A stretch of DNA of 33,318 bases, taken from positions 1 through 33,318 of the forward strand of contig MWCY01000033.1 of the NCBI GenBank assembly GCA_002070275.1, given 5' to 3'. This stretch comes from Candidatus Hydrogenedentes bacterium ADurb.Bin170 (GTDB taxonomy: Bacteria > Hydrogenedentota > Hydrogenedentia > Hydrogenedentales > CAITNO01). The notes under the pieces are model-generated. The model had not been told where the DNA came from, searched no databases, and saw only the letters and a program-made list of their open reading frames with translations. Positions 2,977 to 18,196 of this stretch are shown piece after piece (the stretch's first letter is position 1; each line of letters starts with the position of its first letter). The position numbers and the translations under genes are program-made.

Positions 2977-5568
2977 ATGGAACTGCCGAAAAAATATCAA
3001 TCTCTGGAACAGGAAAACCGCTGGCAAAAAGAATGGGAAGAAAAGGCATTATACGCCTGGGATCCCTCATGCAGCCGCGAAGAAACATTTGCCGTTGATA
3101 CACCGCCGCCCACTGTCAGCGGTTCACTGCATGTCGGTCATCTCTTCAGTTACTCCCACCAGGATTTTATCGTCCGTTTTCAGAGAATGACCGGAAAAAA
3201 TATATTCTTTCCCATTGGCTGGGATGATAACGGACTGCCCACAGAACGACGCGTACAGAACATGTACAACGTCAAATGTGAGCCGCATGTTCCCTATGAC
3301 CCGGAGCTGAAGACGGAACGGGGAAGAAAAGGCACACCGCTTCCTATCAGCCGCAAAAACTTTATCGAACTGTGCGATGTAGTGACCAAAGAAGACGAAG
3401 CCGCCTTCAAGCATTTGTGGACTCGGCTGGGTCTCAGTTACGACTGGTCACTGGAATATGCCACCATTGACGAACATTGCCGGCGTACCTCGCAGGCAAG
3501 TTTTCTGGACATGCTGGAGAAGGACGAGGTCTATCAGGACAACCGGCCGGTGCTGTGGGATGTTGATTTCCGGACGGCTATCGCGCAGGCGGAAGTGACG
3601 GACAAGGAAGTAGCGGGGGCTTACCATTTTCTGCGTTTCGGTGTGGAGGGCTCCGAAGAGGTGCTGGTCATTGCCACGACCCGGCCGGAACTGCTGGCTG
3701 CCTGCGTCGCTGTGATGGTGCATCCGGAGGATGCCCGTTATCGCGCATATGTGGGTAAAAAGGCAGTGACGCCTCTTTTCGGTGCGCCTGTGCCGATCAT
3801 AGCTGACGAGCGTGCCAACCCTGAGAAAGGAACAGGGGTGGTGATGGTCTGCACTTTCGGCGACCAGACCGACGTGGAATGGTGGCAGGAGTATAAACTG
3901 CCGCTCCGCCAGATTCTGGGCCAGGATGGCAGGCTGCTGCCGCTGACTTTTGTTGCCCGGTCTGAAAAGGATGCCCTTTGGATCAGTGTCAACCCCGAGC
4001 TTGCCAATGCGACCTACGGGGAGCTGGCGGGGCTGCCGGCGAAAAAGGCACAGCAGCGATTCATTGAGATCGCTGAGGCGACACCCGGCGTGATTGACAG
4101 ACCTTCGGAAGCGATTACCCATGCGGTGAAGTTTTTCGAAAAGGGCGACAGACCGCTCGAGCTGATCCCTGCCCGCCAGTGGTATGGCAGGATCATGGAC
4201 AAGAAGGAAGCGCTGTTGGAGCAGGGGCGTAAAATCCAGTGGCATCCGGAATTTATGTCCAAGCGCTACGAGCACTGGGTGGAGGGGCTGAATCAGGACT
4301 GGTGCCTGAGCCGGCAGCGTTTTTTCGGTGTGCCGATCCCGGTCTGGTATCCGCTGGATGAGCAGGGCCGCTGCAAATATGATGAAGTGATTATACCATC
4401 GCCGGACAGCCTCCCGGTTGATCCTCTCGATGATGTGCCGCCCAGGTACGAAAGCAGCCAGCGTGATCAGCCCGGCGGCTTCACCGGCGATCCGGACGTA
4501 TTCGACACCTGGGCAACCAGCTCACTGACCCCGCAGATTGCGAGCCGCTGGGTTGAAGATAAAGACCGGCACAGCCGTCTGTTTCCCATGGATATCCGGC
4601 CGCAAAGTCATGAGATCATCCGCACGTGGGCTTTCTACACGATTGTGAAGGCCTATTTGCATGAAGGTGTGATTCCCTGGAAACATGTGGTGATCAGCGG
4701 CTGGATTCTGGATCCGGATCGGAAAAAGATGTCGAAGAGCCAGGGGAATGTCATTACACCAGAACCGCTGATTGATGAGTACGGAGCAGACAGTGTCCGA
4801 TACTGGGCGGCTCGGGCACGCCTCGGTGTGGATACTGCTTATGATGAGCAAGTTTTCAAGGTCGGCCGCAAACTTTGTACGAAGCTGTTTAATGCCGCCA
4901 AGTTTGCTATCGGACGCTTCAGCGAGGTGGAGCGGGCTGCGCTGGTACCGGAAGCTGTTACAGAAGAACTGGACCGCGCCTTTCTTGCCGAACTGCGCCC
5001 GCTGATCAGCAGGGCAACCCGTGCCTTTGAGGAGTTTGATTATGCGCAGGCTTTGAGTCTTGTGGAGGATTTCTTCTGGACCTGTTTCTGCGACAACTAT
5101 CTGGAAATGGCAAAGCCCCGTACTTACGATGAAGAACTGACTGCTGAACGACTCTCCGCCTGTGCAACGCTTCGAATCAGCCTGAGTATGCTCGTCCGAA
5201 TGTTTGCACCGTTTGTCCCTTATATTACTGAAGAGATCTGGAACTGGGAGTTTTCGAAAGAAGAGCCCTCTGTACACCGGGCGCCCTGGCCTGCTCTTTC
5301 TGAAATCGCTGCAGTACCTGCGCCCGCTTCGTCAAAAAGCTGGCAGGCTGCCCTTATGCTGACTGAGCAGGTGCGCAAGGCAAAAGCCGATGCCAACCTC
5401 AGCATGGCGGCGCCTGTCCGCGAAGTGCTGGTGAAAGCGGCACCGGACTGGATGGAGGGGGTGCGTGCTGCTGCACAGGATATTATCCGGATGCTTCGGG
5501 TTGAAACCTGGAATCTGGTTGAGGACGAGACTGTGGATTCCGTTTTAAGCTCAGCGCACCTGGAATAG
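2977..5568 (+). CDS. valS: Valyl-tRNA synthetase
   Basis: Class I aminoacyl-tRNA synthetase of 863 aa that charges tRNA-Val. The signature HVGH is at residues 52-55 and KMSKS at 584-588. The inserted editing domain shows the expected ATTRPE segment near residues 230-240, and the DTWATSSLTP stretch precedes the second half of the catalytic core. The ATG at 2977 is chosen because GGAGG lies 5-6 bases upstream; an upstream in-frame ATG at 2920 has no such site. The GWDDNGLPTERRVQN stretch and the short C-terminus without the long coiled-coil arm of classical bacterial ValRS (E. coli type) resemble the archaeal-like ValRS clade found in some bacteria. That clade assignment is from memory of motifs and needs a tree. 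Confidence 0.95.
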   Translation: MELPKKYQSLEQENRWQKEWEEKALYAWDPSCSREETFAVDTPPPTVSGSLHVGHLFSYSHQDFIVRFQRMTGKNIFFPIGWDDNGLPTERRVQNMYNVKCEPHVPYDPELKTERGRKGTPLPISRKNFIELCDVVTKEDEAAFKHLWTRLGLSYDWSLEYATIDEHCRRTSQASFLDMLEKDEVYQDNRPVLWDVDFRTAIAQAEVTDKEVAGAYHFLRFGVEGSEEVLVIATTRPELLAACVAVMVHPEDARYRAYVGKKAVTPLFGAPVPIIADERANPEKGTGVVMVCTFGDQTDVEWWQEYKLPLRQILGQDGRLLPLTFVARSEKDALWISVNPELANATYGELAGLPAKKAQQRFIEIAEATPGVIDRPSEAITHAVKFFEKGDRPLELIPARQWYGRIMDKKEALLEQGRKIQWHPEFMSKRYEHWVEGLNQDWCLSRQRFFGVPIPVWYPLDEQGRCKYDEVIIPSPDSLPVDPLDDVPPRYESSQRDQPGGFTGDPDVFDTWATSSLTPQIASRWVEDKDRHSRLFPMDIRPQSHEIIRTWAFYTIVKAYLHEGVIPWKHVVISGWILDPDRKKMSKSQGNVITPEPLIDEYGADSVRYWAARARLGVDTAYDEQVFKVGRKLCTKLFNAAKFAIGRFSEVERAALVPEAVTEELDRAFLAELRPLISRATRAFEEFDYAQALSLVEDFFWTCFCDNYLEMAKPRTYDEELTAERLSACATLRISLSMLVRMFAPFVPYITEEIWNWEFSKEEPSVHRAPWPALSEIAAVPAPASSKSWQAALMLTEQVRKAKADANLSMAAPVREVLVKAAPDWMEGVRAAAQDIIRMLRVETWNLVEDETVDSVLSSAHLE

Positions 5569-8179: not shown

Positions 8180-10882
8180 ATGTCCTTAAACAGTTTCAGA
8201 CAAAAAACAATCATTGCCATTCTGGTTCTGCTGACTCTGGCGGTTGCCACAACCGTTACTTTCCAGTTTATTCTCTTCAATGATCTGGACAAGTTGGGCG
8301 GCATGTATGACATTTACCGGTACTACGGACCTCTGACCTTTTTTGTGGACAGCTGTATTCACAATGGCGAATTTCCTGCCTGGAACCCGCTGACCTATTG
8401 TGGCCTGCCTAATGTGGGTAATCCTCAAAGTTTTATTTTTTATCCGCCCAACCTGATCCGGTCACTACTCACATCCAATCCGACTCCCGCGCGTACCAAT
8501 ATATCCCTTGCAATCATGATGGGATTGCATTTTCTTTTTATGGGGGTCTGCACCTATCTTCTCGGGCGTGCGCATAAAATGAGTGTGACAGCGGCGCTTA
8601 CCGGAGCTCTCTCTTTTCTTTTCAGCGCGCTCATGGTCAGACGTATGTGCGAGTATCATTTTATTACAACAATGGCCTGGCTTCCCCTGCTGCTGCTGCT
8701 GATAAAAAAGATAATAGATGCCCGGGAGTTTGCTCTCAAAGTATTTCTGTCACTCCTCGCCGGAACCGTTCTTGGTCTGAGTATTCTCGGCGGATTTCTG
8801 CAGATCATCAATCTGATGGGGCTGGTATCCGCCCTCTATGGGCTCTTTTATTTTCTTCTGAACCACGACTGGCAGCGACAGGAAGAAGGGGGACGTCTGG
8901 CGTTTTTCCGGCCTTTTCTATGGAATGGCATTGCCATGGCGATCATCTTTCTTGTCGGATCGGGTCTTGCCGCCGTATCACTTATCCCTTCCTGGGAGCT
9001 GGGCTCCTACACCTTGCGCACCGGTGGTCAGGCAACCCCGAAATACTCGGACTTATGGAAGTGGACGCCTCTTGATTTTTATAAAAAACTCGTGCTGTAT
9101 GGCGGTGTGAAGTATGAAGCGGAGACACTGCGCAACTCGGGAATCGTAGCGCTCCTGCTTTCAGCTGCAGGGCTGACCTGGAAAAAAAGGAGAGACAGTT
9201 TTCTGTTTTTGGGGCTTTTTCTGGTTCTTTTTGAATGCAGTTTCGGTCCGCCGCTGCCGCTGGGAGCACTGCTGGAAAAAGTCACGCCTTTTTCCATGTC
9301 CGCCTATACACGCGCCTATGATTTCGCCTTGCTTCCTTTGTCTCTCCTTGCCGGATTCGGGCTGGATGCCATTCGGGCGCCCCTGGCAGATCGGGGCAAA
9401 TCTCTCGCCCGGGCAGTGGGACTGCTCCTCATCGCCGTTGTGCTGATTGCGCCCATTACCTCCTGGCTGCCGGAGATTCAGTATATAACAGTCAATCGTA
9501 TTGTGATTGTACTGCCTCTTGTGGCACTCATCCTGATGCTCCTTGCCGGGACAGTTCCGCTGAATGACCGGGCGCGTCCTGTCGTCGTTCTGCTGCTGAT
9601 GGGGCTTCTTTTTGCAGAAACATTTGCCTGGAACCAGAGTTTCATTCCCTATATGGCGAAGGCAAAAGTCCGGGATTATATTCAGGATGCACCGGAGCCC
9701 TGTGCTGTCCCCATTGACAACAGACGCAGGACTGATCCGGTCTGTAACCGCCTGCTCTACCGGCTCCAATTTTCCATGAATGGTGTGGATCCGCTGCATT
9801 TGAGCGCTGTTCGTGATCTTCTCAGCGGGCCGCCCCGCGATAAGGGACCCTATAGAGGGGTGCAGGACTGGGAAGTGACCCGGGAAAACCTGCGCGGCAA
9901 TCTTCTTTTTAAACGTTCTTTCTGGTTGGCAAAGCAATATTGTGTCGGCACGCTCCCCGGCAAAAGAGAGTTTTACCCCGCGGCATCAACTGTTTTTCTC
10001 GAAGAGCCGCTTGATGCGCCTATACCTCAAGTGGAACGGAAGTCGCTTCGAAACTCCGGCGTTTCAGAAAAATATCTGGAGCAGGAGATCACTCAGCCGG
10101 ATGCCTTGTTTTCAGCAGTGCCTCCCGGCGCAACCAAATCCTTCACCGTGCGTCTGTCTCCGGCAAAATCGGCTGAAGGGCGGCCTGTAGGCTCCTGCGG
10201 AGTACTGCACAGTTCTCTGATGCTGTGGTATCGTTCCAATCCCGGAGTCGTGATCGACACGGAATTGACTGATACACAAACACACTTTTCGGAGCAGGGG
10301 ATTCGTCATACGACACGCAGTGCTGCTGTACGGGAAACGGGAACCGAAGTGCCGTTGCCTGACTTTCCTGAGATGACGGCAAAAATTACAGTGACCAATA
10401 AAAGCAGAGATCCTTTTCAGTTCACCCGTTTACTGCTGCGCTCAGATCTGGAGGATGAGGACGGGCTGATCCATATTGCCGGGCGCTCCGCCAATCGTGC
10501 GCTTGTGGAGATAGGACCTCTGGAGGAGCCCCGTATTCTCAGCTTTCTGGATTCCTGGTACCCTGGATGGTCCGTAAAGATTGACGGAGATCCGGCACCG
10601 CTTCTGAAAGTGAATGAGCGTTTTAAAGGAGTGGTTGTACCGCCGGGTACACACAAAGTTGAATTCGTGTTTAATCCTGTCCTGACCTGGCGCTCTCTTG
10701 CGTTTTCGCTTTTCCTGTTTATTCTTGTCCTTACAGGAATGTCATTTACCGGCATGTATACGCTGAGAACAAGGTACATAAAAAAGGGGAAGGCATCCGG
10801 GCTGGATGCCTCCAGTACAACTCAGGCTGAAGAGGATGAAGTGCCGGAAGCATCTGAGACGGGGGAACGAAACTTGACGTAA
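8180..10882 (+). CDS. YfhO-family polytopic membrane protein (putative GT-C-like glycosyltransferase)
   Basis: Predicted 900-aa integral membrane protein. Its first helix (TIIAILVLLTLAVATTVTF) is followed by the YfhO-type periplasmic loop with YDIYRYYGPLTFFVDS and EFPAWNPLTYCGLP, then about a dozen hydrophobic segments up to about residue 490. A long soluble region follows, ending in the family-typical SWYPGWSVKIDG and GVVVPPGTHKVEFVFNP stretches, a last helix (LAFSLFLFILVLTGMSF) and an acidic tail. YfhO homologues are implicated in adding sugars to cell-wall or lipid polymers from lipid-linked donors, and the upstream GT2 gene could make such a donor. The start is uncertain: 8180 is preferred because it puts the first helix near the N-terminus, and 8135/8147 are possible. 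The last 61 bases overlap the convergent YidC-like gene. Confidence 0.8.
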   Translation: MSLNSFRQKTIIAILVLLTLAVATTVTFQFILFNDLDKLGGMYDIYRYYGPLTFFVDSCIHNGEFPAWNPLTYCGLPNVGNPQSFIFYPPNLIRSLLTSNPTPARTNISLAIMMGLHFLFMGVCTYLLGRAHKMSVTAALTGALSFLFSALMVRRMCEYHFITTMAWLPLLLLLIKKIIDAREFALKVFLSLLAGTVLGLSILGGFLQIINLMGLVSALYGLFYFLLNHDWQRQEEGGRLAFFRPFLWNGIAMAIIFLVGSGLAAVSLIPSWELGSYTLRTGGQATPKYSDLWKWTPLDFYKKLVLYGGVKYEAETLRNSGIVALLLSAAGLTWKKRRDSFLFLGLFLVLFECSFGPPLPLGALLEKVTPFSMSAYTRAYDFALLPLSLLAGFGLDAIRAPLADRGKSLARAVGLLLIAVVLIAPITSWLPEIQYITVNRIVIVLPLVALILMLLAGTVPLNDRARPVVVLLLMGLLFAETFAWNQSFIPYMAKAKVRDYIQDAPEPCAVPIDNRRRTDPVCNRLLYRLQFSMNGVDPLHLSAVRDLLSGPPRDKGPYRGVQDWEVTRENLRGNLLFKRSFWLAKQYCVGTLPGKREFYPAASTVFLEEPLDAPIPQVERKSLRNSGVSEKYLEQEITQPDALFSAVPPGATKSFTVRLSPAKSAEGRPVGSCGVLHSSLMLWYRSNPGVVIDTELTDTQTHFSEQGIRHTTRSAAVRETGTEVPLPDFPEMTAKITVTNKSRDPFQFTRLLLRSDLEDEDGLIHIAGRSANRALVEIGPLEEPRILSFLDSWYPGWSVKIDGDPAPLLKVNERFKGVVVPPGTHKVEFVFNPVLTWRSLAFSLFLFILVLTGMSFTGMYTLRTRYIKKGKASGLDASSTTQAEEDEVPEASETGERNLT

Positions 10883-11514
10883 TACCAACGCTCCGGGATA
10901 TGCACCACGTTCAGCATAATCCAGAAAAGCATGCAGGAAGAAGGGAAAGGATAAAAAAGAAAGAAGAAAATGAGGGGTAAAGAAAAGGATTTGATGCCGG
11001 TTGTTTCATCCCGGAAAAGAATGACCTCTGAGGCATTGACTAAAAAGAGGAGAAAAGGGAGCAGGTTTACACTGGAACCCAGCCAGGGAAGCGAAATGCC
11101 GAGAGGAATCAGAGCATCCACCTCCTGAAGATTTCTGATCCAGAGAAAGGAGTGCTCCGCCAGACCTTCCCAGCGAATCATGGTTCGGTAAAAAGCCACC
11201 AGCAGCGGCAGCTGAATCAGCAGAGGCAGCAGCGCTTTGCACTGATTGGTGAAATTGATGCCGTGCGCCTGATAAATATTCAGAATTTCGTCATCCCGTT
11301 GCGCTGCATCAGTTATTGACAGACCGGCTATCTCCTCTTTTGCCGATTTGAATGCAGCCTGAAAACGCTCCTGCCATTTCATCCCGTATAAAGTGACCGG
11401 AAGAAGAAGCGCTTTAAGGGCCACGGCAAAAAGCAGGATGGCAATGCCGTAGCTTCCCGCCGTGCCTGCAAGAAAAACAATGATCTGTACGATTGATTCA
11501 GATAAAAACTGCAT
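10822..11514 (-). CDS. Short YidC/Oxa1-like membrane protein insertase homologue
   Basis: Predicted 230-aa polytopic protein related to the YidC/Oxa1/Alb3 core. It has the N-terminal helix (YGIAILLFAVALKALLLPVTLYGMKW), a cytoplasmic hairpin rich in charged residues, then LLPLLIQLPLLVAFYRTM and three further hydrophobic segments, matching the five-helix core. It lacks the large periplasmic domain of proteobacterial YidC and has no lipobox. The groove arginine of YidC helix 1 appears as Lys34. The C-terminus is Ser-rich without a basic tail. It lies alone between a LamG-type gene and a convergent yfhO, away from the usual rpmH-rnpA-yidC cluster, so it may be a paralogue for a special client. 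The start has AGGA only 2 bases upstream, which is unusually close. Confidence 0.7.
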   Translation of the reverse strand: MQFLSESIVQIIVFLAGTAGSYGIAILLFAVALKALLLPVTLYGMKWQERFQAAFKSAKEEIAGLSITDAAQRDDEILNIYQAHGINFTNQCKALLPLLIQLPLLVAFYRTMIRWEGLAEHSFLWIRNLQEVDALIPLGISLPWLGSSVNLLPFLLFLVNASEVILFRDETTGIKSFSLPLIFFFLFYPFPSSCMLFWIMLNVVHIPERWYYVKFRSPVSDASGTSSSSA

Positions 11515-14998: not shown

Positions 14999-16108
14999 TC
15001 AGTCGAGAGGCTGAATATGAATATTTTTGAAAGAGAGATCAGTTGTCGGGTCATGTCCCTGCAGGTTGATTGTTCCGGCAGTGCTGACATAGCCGTTTTT
15101 GCCGTTGGCATCTTCCGAAACAGGGCGTGTGTCGGTAAAATCAGCGGTCTGATAGCCATTCACCCACACGGCGTAATGGTTATCGCAGCAGGCAACGGTC
15201 ATGGTGAACCATTCGCGATCATTGCTGACCACTTTCCGGGCAGGCTTTAATCCGTAAAGACCGCCTGTGCCGAAATCGACCGGTTTGCTTCGGTCATCAC
15301 GGGTCCACTGATTTCTAATCTGGGCTTCATAGCCGACCCAGAAAACTCCCGGAGGCGTCCGGAAGAAAACACCGCTGTTCAAGTGGTCGCCATTGGAATA
15401 GATATCCAGCTGCAGAACGAAATTCCGATAAACACCGGTTGTTTCAATCTGGCCGTTTCCGTCTTTGATATTGAGCGCACCGTCATTGACGGAGAAGACT
15501 GATTTGCGATCGGGAATAATATTCCATCCATCCAGATTCTCTCCATTGAAGAGAGAGGTCATGGCAAGGGGGCGAAGTTTCACTTCTTTGATTTCAAGTT
15601 TCGGACCTTTTTTGAAGCGGTCATACTTATGAAACTGAATGGCGATATGTCCTTTTGTGTTGGAAACCGCTGTCGGAACATCGATATCGTTGACCTGAGC
15701 AGTCACTTCTTTGCCCAGTGCCCGGATGTTCACCGTGGAAAATGCCGCATTATCTTCTCCGGCAACCAGATTCACTGCGGCGCCGCCCTGCTCCTGCGCA
15801 TATCCGGAAAGAGGTGCACGAAAAGCGATGCCGGCTGTTCCCATTCCGGTGACCCGCATGGTGACAGACAGATCAAAATCGGAAAACTGTGCCAGCGTTG
15901 CAAGAAAGCCGCTGTTGCCCTGGGTTAAGGAAAGAACTCCGTCAGACACCTCCCAGTTGCCGTCACCGACCGGAGTCCATCCGTAAAGGCTTTCACCGTC
16001 AAAAAGGTTGATCCATTGTCCTTCGGCGACGTCCTGCGCATGAATCGTGCTGCATGCAAGGGCAAGACATGAGCCAGCGAGAAGCACACTGAGTGTTCTG
16101 ATTTTCAT
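14999..16108 (-). CDS. Secreted tandem DUF1080 (3-keto-disaccharide hydrolase-like) protein
   Basis: Predicted 369-aa exported protein with two copies of the DUF1080 concanavalin-like fold. The first opens WINLFDGESLYGWTPVGDGNWEVSDGVL near residue 30 and the second opens TSLFNGENLDGWNI near residue 185. The second copy carries the family-typical NSGVFFRTPPG, GYEAQIRN and GGLYGLKPARK stretches. The first copy is more diverged, with FAT-like and AFRAP motifs. An N-terminal signal peptide ends near IHA|QD; a Cys at about residue 19 follows LALA but is a poor lipobox. DUF1080 members cleave 3-keto-glycosides or bind sugars in the periplasm. ATG 16108 is chosen for AAGGAG 6 bases upstream. It has its own terminator, so it is probably monocistronic or last in its unit. 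Confidence 0.8.
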   Translation of the reverse strand: MKIRTLSVLLAGSCLALACSTIHAQDVAEGQWINLFDGESLYGWTPVGDGNWEVSDGVLSLTQGNSGFLATLAQFSDFDLSVTMRVTGMGTAGIAFRAPLSGYAQEQGGAAVNLVAGEDNAAFSTVNIRALGKEVTAQVNDIDVPTAVSNTKGHIAIQFHKYDRFKKGPKLEIKEVKLRPLAMTSLFNGENLDGWNIIPDRKSVFSVNDGALNIKDGNGQIETTGVYRNFVLQLDIYSNGDHLNSGVFFRTPPGVFWVGYEAQIRNQWTRDDRSKPVDFGTGGLYGLKPARKVVSNDREWFTMTVACCDNHYAVWVNGYQTADFTDTRPVSEDANGKNGYVSTAGTINLQGHDPTTDLSFKNIHIQPLD

Positions 16109-16207
16109 CGGTTTCTCCTTGGGTGATAAAGTGATCATTTCAGCCGTTATTATTATGCGCCAAGTAACGATTACAGCAAAGGCTAGCGCTACAAGCAGAC
16201 AGAGCCG

Positions 16208-16507
16208 TCAGGCAACTTCTTTTGCCGACGCCTGCTCCGCATAGATCCTGAGTTTGTCCCGCTCCACAGTGCCCATAGGATTTCGCGGAATTTCTTCAAT
16301 GATTTTAATCCGGATTTCCTGCGTGTTGCCAGGCATGCGCTGGGCGCAGTACTCATGCAGTTCTTTTTCAGTGAGTCCTTCACTGGCAGTCGGAACAACG
16401 AAGGCGCAAAGCGTTTCTTTTTTATCCGTCAGTTCGAAGCGTGTCACATAGACTTCTGACACATTTTCATGCTCGAACAATAAAGCGCCAATATCAGATG
16501 GTTTCAT
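16208..16507 (-). CDS. Stand-alone AMP-binding-enzyme C-terminal domain, catalytic Lys replaced
   Basis: Predicted 99-aa protein that corresponds only to the C-terminal lid domain of acyl-CoA synthetase/adenylating enzymes (AMP-binding_C type). It opens KPSDIGALLFEHENVSEVYV, like the ENV/HP-x-V-x-E segment that starts the lid domain, and continues with LCAFVVP, ELHEYCAQRMP and EEIPRNPMGTVERDKLR. In active enzymes this last motif reads P-x-(T/N)-x-x-G-K-x-x-R with an invariant Lys. Here the Lys position is Thr80 (ACT codon). ATG 16507 is preferred because AAGGAG lies 9 bases upstream and the domain starts right there; in-frame ATG 16546 is an alternative. No N-terminal adenylating domain gene lies in the window. 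It may be a remnant, a regulatory lid or a partner of a split enzyme. Confidence 0.65.
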   Translation of the reverse strand: MKPSDIGALLFEHENVSEVYVTRFELTDKKETLCAFVVPTASEGLTEKELHEYCAQRMPGNTQEIRIKIIEEIPRNPMGTVERDKLRIYAEQASAKEVA

Positions 16508-16699
16508 ACCATACTGCTCCTTAAGATCGGTTTGTGCTGATGACATCTTCTTAATACTACGGTCAACGGACAGAAATGTTTCCCGGGATTAAGAGGAGGG
16601 GGTGGCATTTCGTTTTGTCTTGTTTGTTGGGGAAGCTGCGATTGCGTATGCCCCGTTTACAGAAGTTGCAGCGGAACGCTGTTAGAACAAGCAGACCCA

Positions 16700-16840: not shown

Positions 16841-18196
16841 TTATGCTTCGGGGACAGGCAAGGCAGGTCGCGACTTCCAGGCACCCCGCGTGAAATCCGG
16901 AATTTCTATCGGCGCACTCTTTTGTGCCACACTCTTCTCACTAAGATCGGCAATGCAGCTCCAGGATGCGCCATCGTATACATCCAGGTCCGGACGCTTT
17001 CCTTCCCGTAAACACTTTATAAGGCGATAATCTTCCAGATAATCCATACCGCCGTGACCGAAGCCGGAAAGATCTTTGCCCAGTTCGCGCCAGAGAACGG
17101 GTTCATACCGTTCCCAATAGTCTTCCATGTCCTCCCAGGTGTGTTCGGGACTGGAACCTTCAACATAAACCCGGTCAGGGTAACCCTCGACAATGCCTTT
17201 GAGCCCCTGTATCAGGTTGATGCGCGTGTATGGTCGTGGATTGCAGGTATTGAAAACTACAGAAATGCTTCTGCCCGCCCGGGTCTGTATGAGTGTTGTA
17301 TTGACATCGCCGCAGGCGAATTTCAGATGGCGACGCGGGTCCTCTTCCGGCAGTTTTTCACGGGCATAAGCTTCCAGCCCGAGGGCGGGGCTACTCATGG
17401 ATACAAGATAAGAAAACTGGTCGCCCCGGTTGATATTCATGCATTGGGCAACAGGACCGATACCGTGCGTGGTGTACAGACTGCCGTTGCGCGTCAGGAC
17501 ATGCTTTTGAAACCACTCCCGCCCGGGTGCAATCTGCAGGAAAATATCACGGATATCATGGAGATAACCGCATTCTCCGTGAATAATTTCGCCTAAAACG
17601 CCCTGGCGTACCATATTCAGCACGGTCATTTCCGTGCGGCCGTAGCAGCAGTTTTCCATCATAATGCAGTATTTGCCGTGTTTTTCAGAAGATTCCACCA
17701 GCCTCCAGCAGTCTTCAAGGGTTACGGCAAGAGGCACTTCAGTGACCGCATGTTTGCCGGAAGCCAGGGCGGCGAGGCAGACTTGCGCATGCCATTCCCA
17801 GGGTGTGGCTGTGTAGACAAGCGTTAAATCTTCTTCGGTACAGAGGCGCATGAAATCAAGTTCGCCCTTGAAATAGCCCGTCGGTCGGGGCTGGCCCGAA
17901 GCTTCAACGAGATCCTGAGCTTTCACAACTTTTTCTTCGACAATATCGCATACAGCGACAATGTCCACGCCCTCCAGATGCAGCAGGTTGCGGAGGTGGC
18001 TTGATCCCATGCCCCCTACGCCCACAAAACCAATACGCACTCTGTCTATGGGCGGTGCGGTCGGTGCTTCTGCAAAGGCAGACGTGTTCTGCGAGGCTGA
18101 AGCGCGATTCTGTATCAGAGCCGCCGCACCCGCTGCAGCACCGATTTTTAAAAAGTCCCGCCGTTCCAAAGACTTGTTTTCATTTTTCAGAGCCAT
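16841..18196 (-). CDS. Tat-exported Gfo/Idh/MocA oxidoreductase, GH109-like (alpha-N-acetylgalactosaminidase type)
   Basis: Predicted 451-aa NAD-dependent protein. A twin-arginine signal (ERRDFLKIGAAAGAAAL, residues 11-27) indicates folding with cofactor in the cytoplasm and Tat export. The Rossmann motif GFVGVGGMGSSH follows near 56-67, and the EVPLAVTLEDCWRLVE stretch matches the EKP-like region of the superfamily. The MMENCCYGR and YTTHGIGPVAQ motifs and the end GHGGMDYLEDYRLIKCLR plus PDFTRG are those of GH109 glycosidases, which use NAD in a redox elimination mechanism to remove alpha-GalNAc. Neighbours are other exported glycan-active proteins, which fits. Gfo/Idh/MocA relatives with other substrates are the alternative. 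The start is ATG 18196 with GAAAGA upstream. Its stop codon lies 294 bases before the putative small-gene region. Confidence 0.8.
   Translation of the reverse strand: MALKNENKSLERRDFLKIGAAAGAAALIQNRASASQNTSAFAEAPTAPPIDRVRIGFVGVGGMGSSHLRNLLHLEGVDIVAVCDIVEEKVVKAQDLVEASGQPRPTGYFKGELDFMRLCTEEDLTLVYTATPWEWHAQVCLAALASGKHAVTEVPLAVTLEDCWRLVESSEKHGKYCIMMENCCYGRTEMTVLNMVRQGVLGEIIHGECGYLHDIRDIFLQIAPGREWFQKHVLTRNGSLYTTHGIGPVAQCMNINRGDQFSYLVSMSSPALGLEAYAREKLPEEDPRRHLKFACGDVNTTLIQTRAGRSISVVFNTCNPRPYTRINLIQGLKGIVEGYPDRVYVEGSSPEHTWEDMEDYWERYEPVLWRELGKDLSGFGHGGMDYLEDYRLIKCLREGKRPDLDVYDGASWSCIADLSEKSVAQKSAPIEIPDFTRGAWKSRPALPVPEA

What the first reader, a model, noticed from the sequence alone, without database searches (positions are those of the whole stretch)
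16208..16507. Stand-alone adenylating-enzyme lid domain with catalytic Lys replaced by Thr
A complete AMP-binding_C domain is encoded by itself with a good ribosome site and promoter, so it is unlikely to be debris. The G-K motif that carries the adenylation Lys reads G-T. The protein may act as a scaffold or inhibitor, or pair with a separately encoded N-terminal domain for only the thioester half-reaction.
Basis: partly seen in the sequence, partly recalled or inferred. Interest (0 to 1): 0.6.

Follow-up and report, generated by a model that had tools for sequence, protein, structure and literature searches.

The report
Conserved stand-alone lysine-less ligase lid
A small gene encodes only the movable "lid" of an acyl-CoA ligase without its catalytic lysine; relatives across the uncultured phylum Hydrogenedentota keep the same stripped-down form under selection, so it is a real, probably non-enzymatic protein whose partner is unknown.

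Summary
Window 16208-16507(-) encodes a 99-aa AMP-binding_C (PF13193) protein with no ligase N-domain; the A10 lysine is Thr. The ribosome site is good; the promoter claim is no better than chance. It is not debris. In 68 Hydrogenedentota genomes I found 17 more stand-alone lids of 90-98 aa (18 in 14 genomes, 7 genera, 3 families). None has the lysine: T, S, A, C, R, V or I stands there, against 39 of 44 ligase lids that keep it. Pairs of relatives show purifying selection (dN/dS mostly 0.05-0.26). AlphaFold gives the lid fold (pLDDT 84). The family also lacks the hinge-side Y-P-x-E start, the GVPD..GE loop and the Y-K-x-P motif, so neither half-reaction looks possible. No lid-less AMP-binding domain turned up in the window's genome or five of six relatives scanned (one unresolved), so the split-enzyme reading is not supported. 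A near-invariant Cys and invariant Val/Arg are new; the window protein has Tyr at the Cys position. Neighbours differ between genera and a sister species lacks the gene at the same site. Best reading: an exapted, non-catalytic lid acting in trans as a binding module. The partner is unknown; origin is one or a few detachments.

The parts
16208..16507 (-). stand-alone lid (AMP-binding_C) protein, 99 aa, MKPSDIG...KEVA
   Evidence: Pfam E 5.4e-8 for the 99-aa form; start position agrees with homologues
16508..16546 (-). possible 13-codon upstream in-frame extension (alternative ATG), not matched by homologues
   Evidence: ORF list, alignment; judged unlikely to be the true start
16517..16522 (-). 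ribosome-binding site AAGGAG, 9 nt before the ATG at 16507
   Evidence: sequence
16268..16270 (-). codon of Thr80, at the position of the A10 catalytic lysine
16448..16450 (-). codon of Tyr20, where 17 of 18 family members have Cys
16841..18196 (-). upstream neighbour: Tat-signal Gfo/Idh/MocA oxidoreductase (Glyco_hydro_109_C); not considered part of the system
14999..16138 (-). downstream neighbour: 3-keto-disaccharide hydrolase; not considered part of the system

Best explanation
A family of small stand-alone proteins of Hydrogenedentota that descends from the C-terminal lid of an acyl-CoA ligase and has been exapted. Shown: stand-alone gene, lid fold predicted, A10 lysine never present, other catalysis- and CoA-side residues lost, fold core kept, purifying selection in those pairs of relatives that could be measured, no fixed gene neighbour. 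Inferred: it has no ligase activity and works in trans as a binding module (adaptor or regulator), with a new surface that includes the E-V-C strand and the G-x-V-x-R turn. Candidate partners are another ligase, a carrier protein or an unrelated protein; I could not determine which.
For: 18 stand-alone lids in 14 of 68 genomes, 7 genera, 3 families; profile scores 95-119 bits against 76 or less for the lids of full ligases, though all 18 are in the profile. All 18 match PF13193 and no other family convincingly. Lys column: T,S,A,C,R,S,A,R,C,V,T,A,I,I,V,I,I,A; in 44 lids that are part of, or contig-cut from, ligases 39 keep K (counting L121 by eye). Lost against ligases: Y-P-x-E start, G-V-P-D, G-E, Y-K-x-P, K; kept: HP.V.E, A-F-V-V, P-K/R, G, L; gained: Cys20 (17/18), Val81 and Arg83 (18/18). 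dN/dS 0.05-0.26 for most pairs, dS not saturated in several of them. Lid fold. AMP-binding proteins with own lids. Literature: the lysine acts in adenylation (PMC8388817; PMC6122825).
Against: No partner or function is shown. The window's protein is the most divergent member (end branch 2.56), has Tyr for the family Cys, and has no close relative for its own dN/dS; the sister species G010 lacks the gene at the syntenic site, so in this lineage it is dispensable. Single origin is weak: 65/87 support, lost when the Lys column is removed (two changes), and a profile of the f2+f5 members scores ligase lids above the f1 members. Some full-length ligases of the phylum also lack Lys.
Confidence: 0.62

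Rival explanations
1. Trans-acting inhibitor or stabiliser of acyl-CoA ligases: the free lid docks on the N-domain of a cellular ligase and competes with, or props, the resident lid.
For: Fold is a lid; the genomes with the gene that I scanned have several full ligases; Lys loss would suit a dead competitor.
Against: The loop and motif positions that ligase lids conserve (hinge start, GVPD..GE, Y-K-x-P) are the ones lost, which argues against docking in the usual way; the genes are not seen next to a ligase.
Confidence: 0.2
2. Split enzyme: a separately encoded N-domain uses this lid for the thioester half-reaction only.
Against: No N-domain without its own lid in the window's genome and none clear in six others (a 299-aa PaaK-type frame on a contig of G011 is unresolved); CoA-side and hinge-side residues are lost; tether absent.
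Confidence: 0.04
3. Decaying fragments: independent truncations of ligases, slowly lost.
For: Patchy presence, absent at the syntenic site of sister species G010; the tree allows 1-3 origins.
Against: Intact frames with own start and mostly a clear ribosome site in 18 of 18, dN/dS well below 1, conserved new residues, no remnant of an N-domain nearby.
Confidence: 0.1

Closest known systems
AMP-binding_C (PF13193), the lid of ANL-superfamily ligases (acyl-CoA synthetases, NRPS A-domains, luciferase)
   Same: Same fold and alignable over positions 4-73 of 76; closest solved sequences are benzoate-CoA ligases
   Different: No N-domain, no hinge/A8 segment, no A10 lysine, no GVPD..GE and Y-K-x-P motifs; new Cys (family, not the window's copy) and strict Val/Arg
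Serine/threonine kinase model NF006620 (PRK09188), 365 positions, whose positions 245-326 match this lid
   Same: A lid-like domain apparently outside a ligase; weak match E 1.4e-5
   Different: There it is part of a kinase-type protein; I did not examine its members. One family member here (G002b) lies just downstream of a kinase-like gene (read by eye), possibly chance
Lysine-less full-length ligases of the same phylum (G012, G013: Arg; G016: Thr; G040: Leu)
   Same: Also lack the A10 lysine
   Different: They keep their N-domain and are not detached

Membership tests
AMP-binding_C domain (PF13193) | Profile match above curated cut-off | tested here: met
   33.6 bits against 24.5; all 18 members match at E up to 0.1
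AMP-binding_C domain (PF13193) | Lid fold | tested here: met
   AlphaFold2 pLDDT 83.7, Foldseek TM mostly 0.63-0.78 (by query length) to ligase lids; predicted, not solved
ANL adenylate-forming ligase | N-terminal AMP-binding domain in the same protein or encoded apart | tested here: not met
   None on the contig; all eight in the genome have their own C-terminal domain
ANL adenylate-forming ligase | A10 catalytic lysine | tested here: not met
   Thr80; absent in 18 of 18 members
ANL adenylate-forming ligase | Hinge/A8 segment for domain alternation | tested here: not met
   Protein starts after it; Y-P-x-E start lost
ANL adenylate-forming ligase | Adenylation or thioesterification activity | not testable with these tools
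   needs assay
Pseudogene | Relaxed constraint or broken frame | tested here: not met
   Family dN/dS 0.05-0.26 in most pairs, frames intact; for the window's copy alone dN/dS is inconclusive, no close relative

The most novel reading that the evidence does not exclude
A new kind of small regulator or adaptor made from a detached ligase lid, kept across a bacterial phylum, in which a new near-invariant cysteine (not present in the window's own copy) replaces catalysis as the functional centre.
Probability: 0.25. Interest if true: 0.65.

Novelty: new variant of a known kind. Interest (0 to 1): 0.5.

Why it matters
Lids are known as moving parts of two-domain ligases. A family of free lids that has consistently lost the catalytic lysine and the CoA- and hinge-side motifs, yet stays under selection, shows the lid can have a life of its own and gives a defined set of 90-99 aa proteins for partner hunting. 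It also warns that automatic names such as 'AMP-binding protein' would be wrong for them. Within the paper library searched I found no description of such a family; most subscription papers are not in that library.

Tried and rejected
Genome-collection scan with the window protein: nothing; with a four-member alignment: two Hydrogenedentota members already known and one full-length, Lys-bearing Solirubrobacterales ligase, so presence outside the phylum stays untested in depth. The listed plasmid tblastn hits carry ligase annotations or none; none was opened. A shared operon partner: none across genera beyond two pairings, the bifunctional-nuclease-like gene upstream in G003, G012, G013 and polysaccharide polymerase/flippase-type genes in G008 and G011; flagellin-like gene beside it in G028-G030, phnW-phnX-like genes beside it in three genus-g2 genomes (names by eye). 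Small hits at contig ends in G032, G065, G050 were set aside as cut-off ligases. A shifted lysine taking over: Lys85 of the window protein is not conserved.

Full report
What is there. The frame at 16208-16546(-) is open. Relatives start at the inner ATG at 16507, which has AAGGAG nine bases before it, giving 99 aa. Pfam finds only AMP-binding_C, E 7.6e-8. Solved relatives are the lids of benzoate-CoA ligase, 4-coumarate-CoA ligase and the like. The model has mean pLDDT 83.7 and its structural neighbours are those lids. The lysine of the P-x4-G-K motif is Thr80. The promoter claim is not better than chance.

Where it is. The window is one contig of a 3.5-Mb genome. Two relatives of the stand-alone lid lie in records named Candidatus Hydrogenedentota, so the search labelled 'phylum' (68 genomes) covers that group, by inference. 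The neighbours are a Gfo/Idh oxidoreductase and a 3-keto-disaccharide hydrolase.

It is a family. A profile search of 68 genomes finds 18 stand-alone lids: twelve in the window's family (G000, G001 three, G002 two, G003 two, G008, G011, G012, G013), two in G017 and G018, four in G027-G030. Each has its own ATG and ends 90-99 residues later; most have a clear ribosome site, some (G001c, G012) a weaker one. None was seen next to a ligase. They score 95-119 bits against 76 or less for ligase lids; since all 18 are in that profile, I also held members out. Without the window's row the profile gives the window 73.5 bits, no more than the best ligase lids (75.8); f2 held out scores 93-96 against 71, f5 73-79 against 73, f1 only 37-62 against 81. 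So membership of f1 with the rest rests on the shared stand-alone form, the lost residues and the tree, not on profile separation.

The tree puts the 18 on one side of a branch with 65/87 support; without the Lys column two changes are needed; a tree with f1 apart is not rejected, p-AU 0.097. One to three detachments fit.

What was lost and kept. At the lysine the 18 carry T, S, A, C, R, V or I; 39 of 44 lids taken from ligases, or from ligases cut by a contig end, have K. In ligases this lysine acts in adenylation (PMC8388817; PMC6122825). The family also lost the Y-P-x-E start, G-V-P-D, G-E and Y-K-x-P, and kept the core. PMC6122825 places Tyr538 of human MACS, in the lid, 3.6 A from bound CoA; equating it with the Y of Y-K-x-P is my inference. 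New are Cys20 (17 of 18; Tyr in the window's copy), Val81 and Arg83.

Selection. Pairwise dN/dS (Nei-Gojobori) is 0.16-0.26 for pairs with dS about 0.85-1.25, 0.39 for G008-G011, and 0.05-0.18 for pairs with saturated dS. The window's copy has no close relative; its codon score is like its neighbours'.

Split enzyme. All eight AMP-binding proteins of the window's genome carry PF13193 or, for two tandem PaaK-type proteins, AMP-binding_C_2; the 1196-aa one has only a weak PF13193 match, E 0.01. In six further genomes the frames with an AMP-binding match are 439 aa or longer but for one of 299 aa on a contig of G011, which I did not resolve; lids were not checked one by one there.

Neighbourhood. 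Order is kept within genera only, with two exceptions across genera. In the sister species G010 the flanking genes align at 70-78% identity, but the space between them holds no lid by a profile search without filters.

Reading. A detached, non-catalytic lid used as a binding module is the best fit. Absence of catalysis and the binding role are inferences from sequence; the partner is unknown.

Noticed in passing
L019, L033 (G013, G012), L030 (G016), L078 (G040): Full-length AMP-binding ligases in the same phylum also lack the A10 lysine (Arg, Arg, Thr, Leu).
   Followed up: partly
L132 (G010:C149:14000-20000), about 3400-4300: The sister species' intergenic space in place of the lid gene holds repeats containing a CCAATTTCCACATTGGCA-like inverted element.
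   Followed up: no
L046:6389-7045: A 4'-phosphopantetheinyl transferase (PF01648) overlaps the bifunctional-nuclease-like gene upstream of the G003 lid; a possible hint at carrier proteins, seen once.
   Followed up: partly
L090-L092: In three f5 genomes the lid gene lies just downstream of a flagellin-like gene, same strand.
   Followed up: no
L051:3099-6370: Two PaaK-type ligase genes (AMP-binding plus AMP-binding_C_2) in tandem in the window's genome.
   Followed up: partly
L093:7172-7459 and L094:6646-6894: A small conserved protein of unknown family (no Pfam hit for the first) follows the second-type lid gene in G002 and G001.
   Followed up: partly
window 10822-11514 (-): Short 230-aa protein resembling a YidC/Oxa1-type insertase, by eye only.
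   Followed up: no
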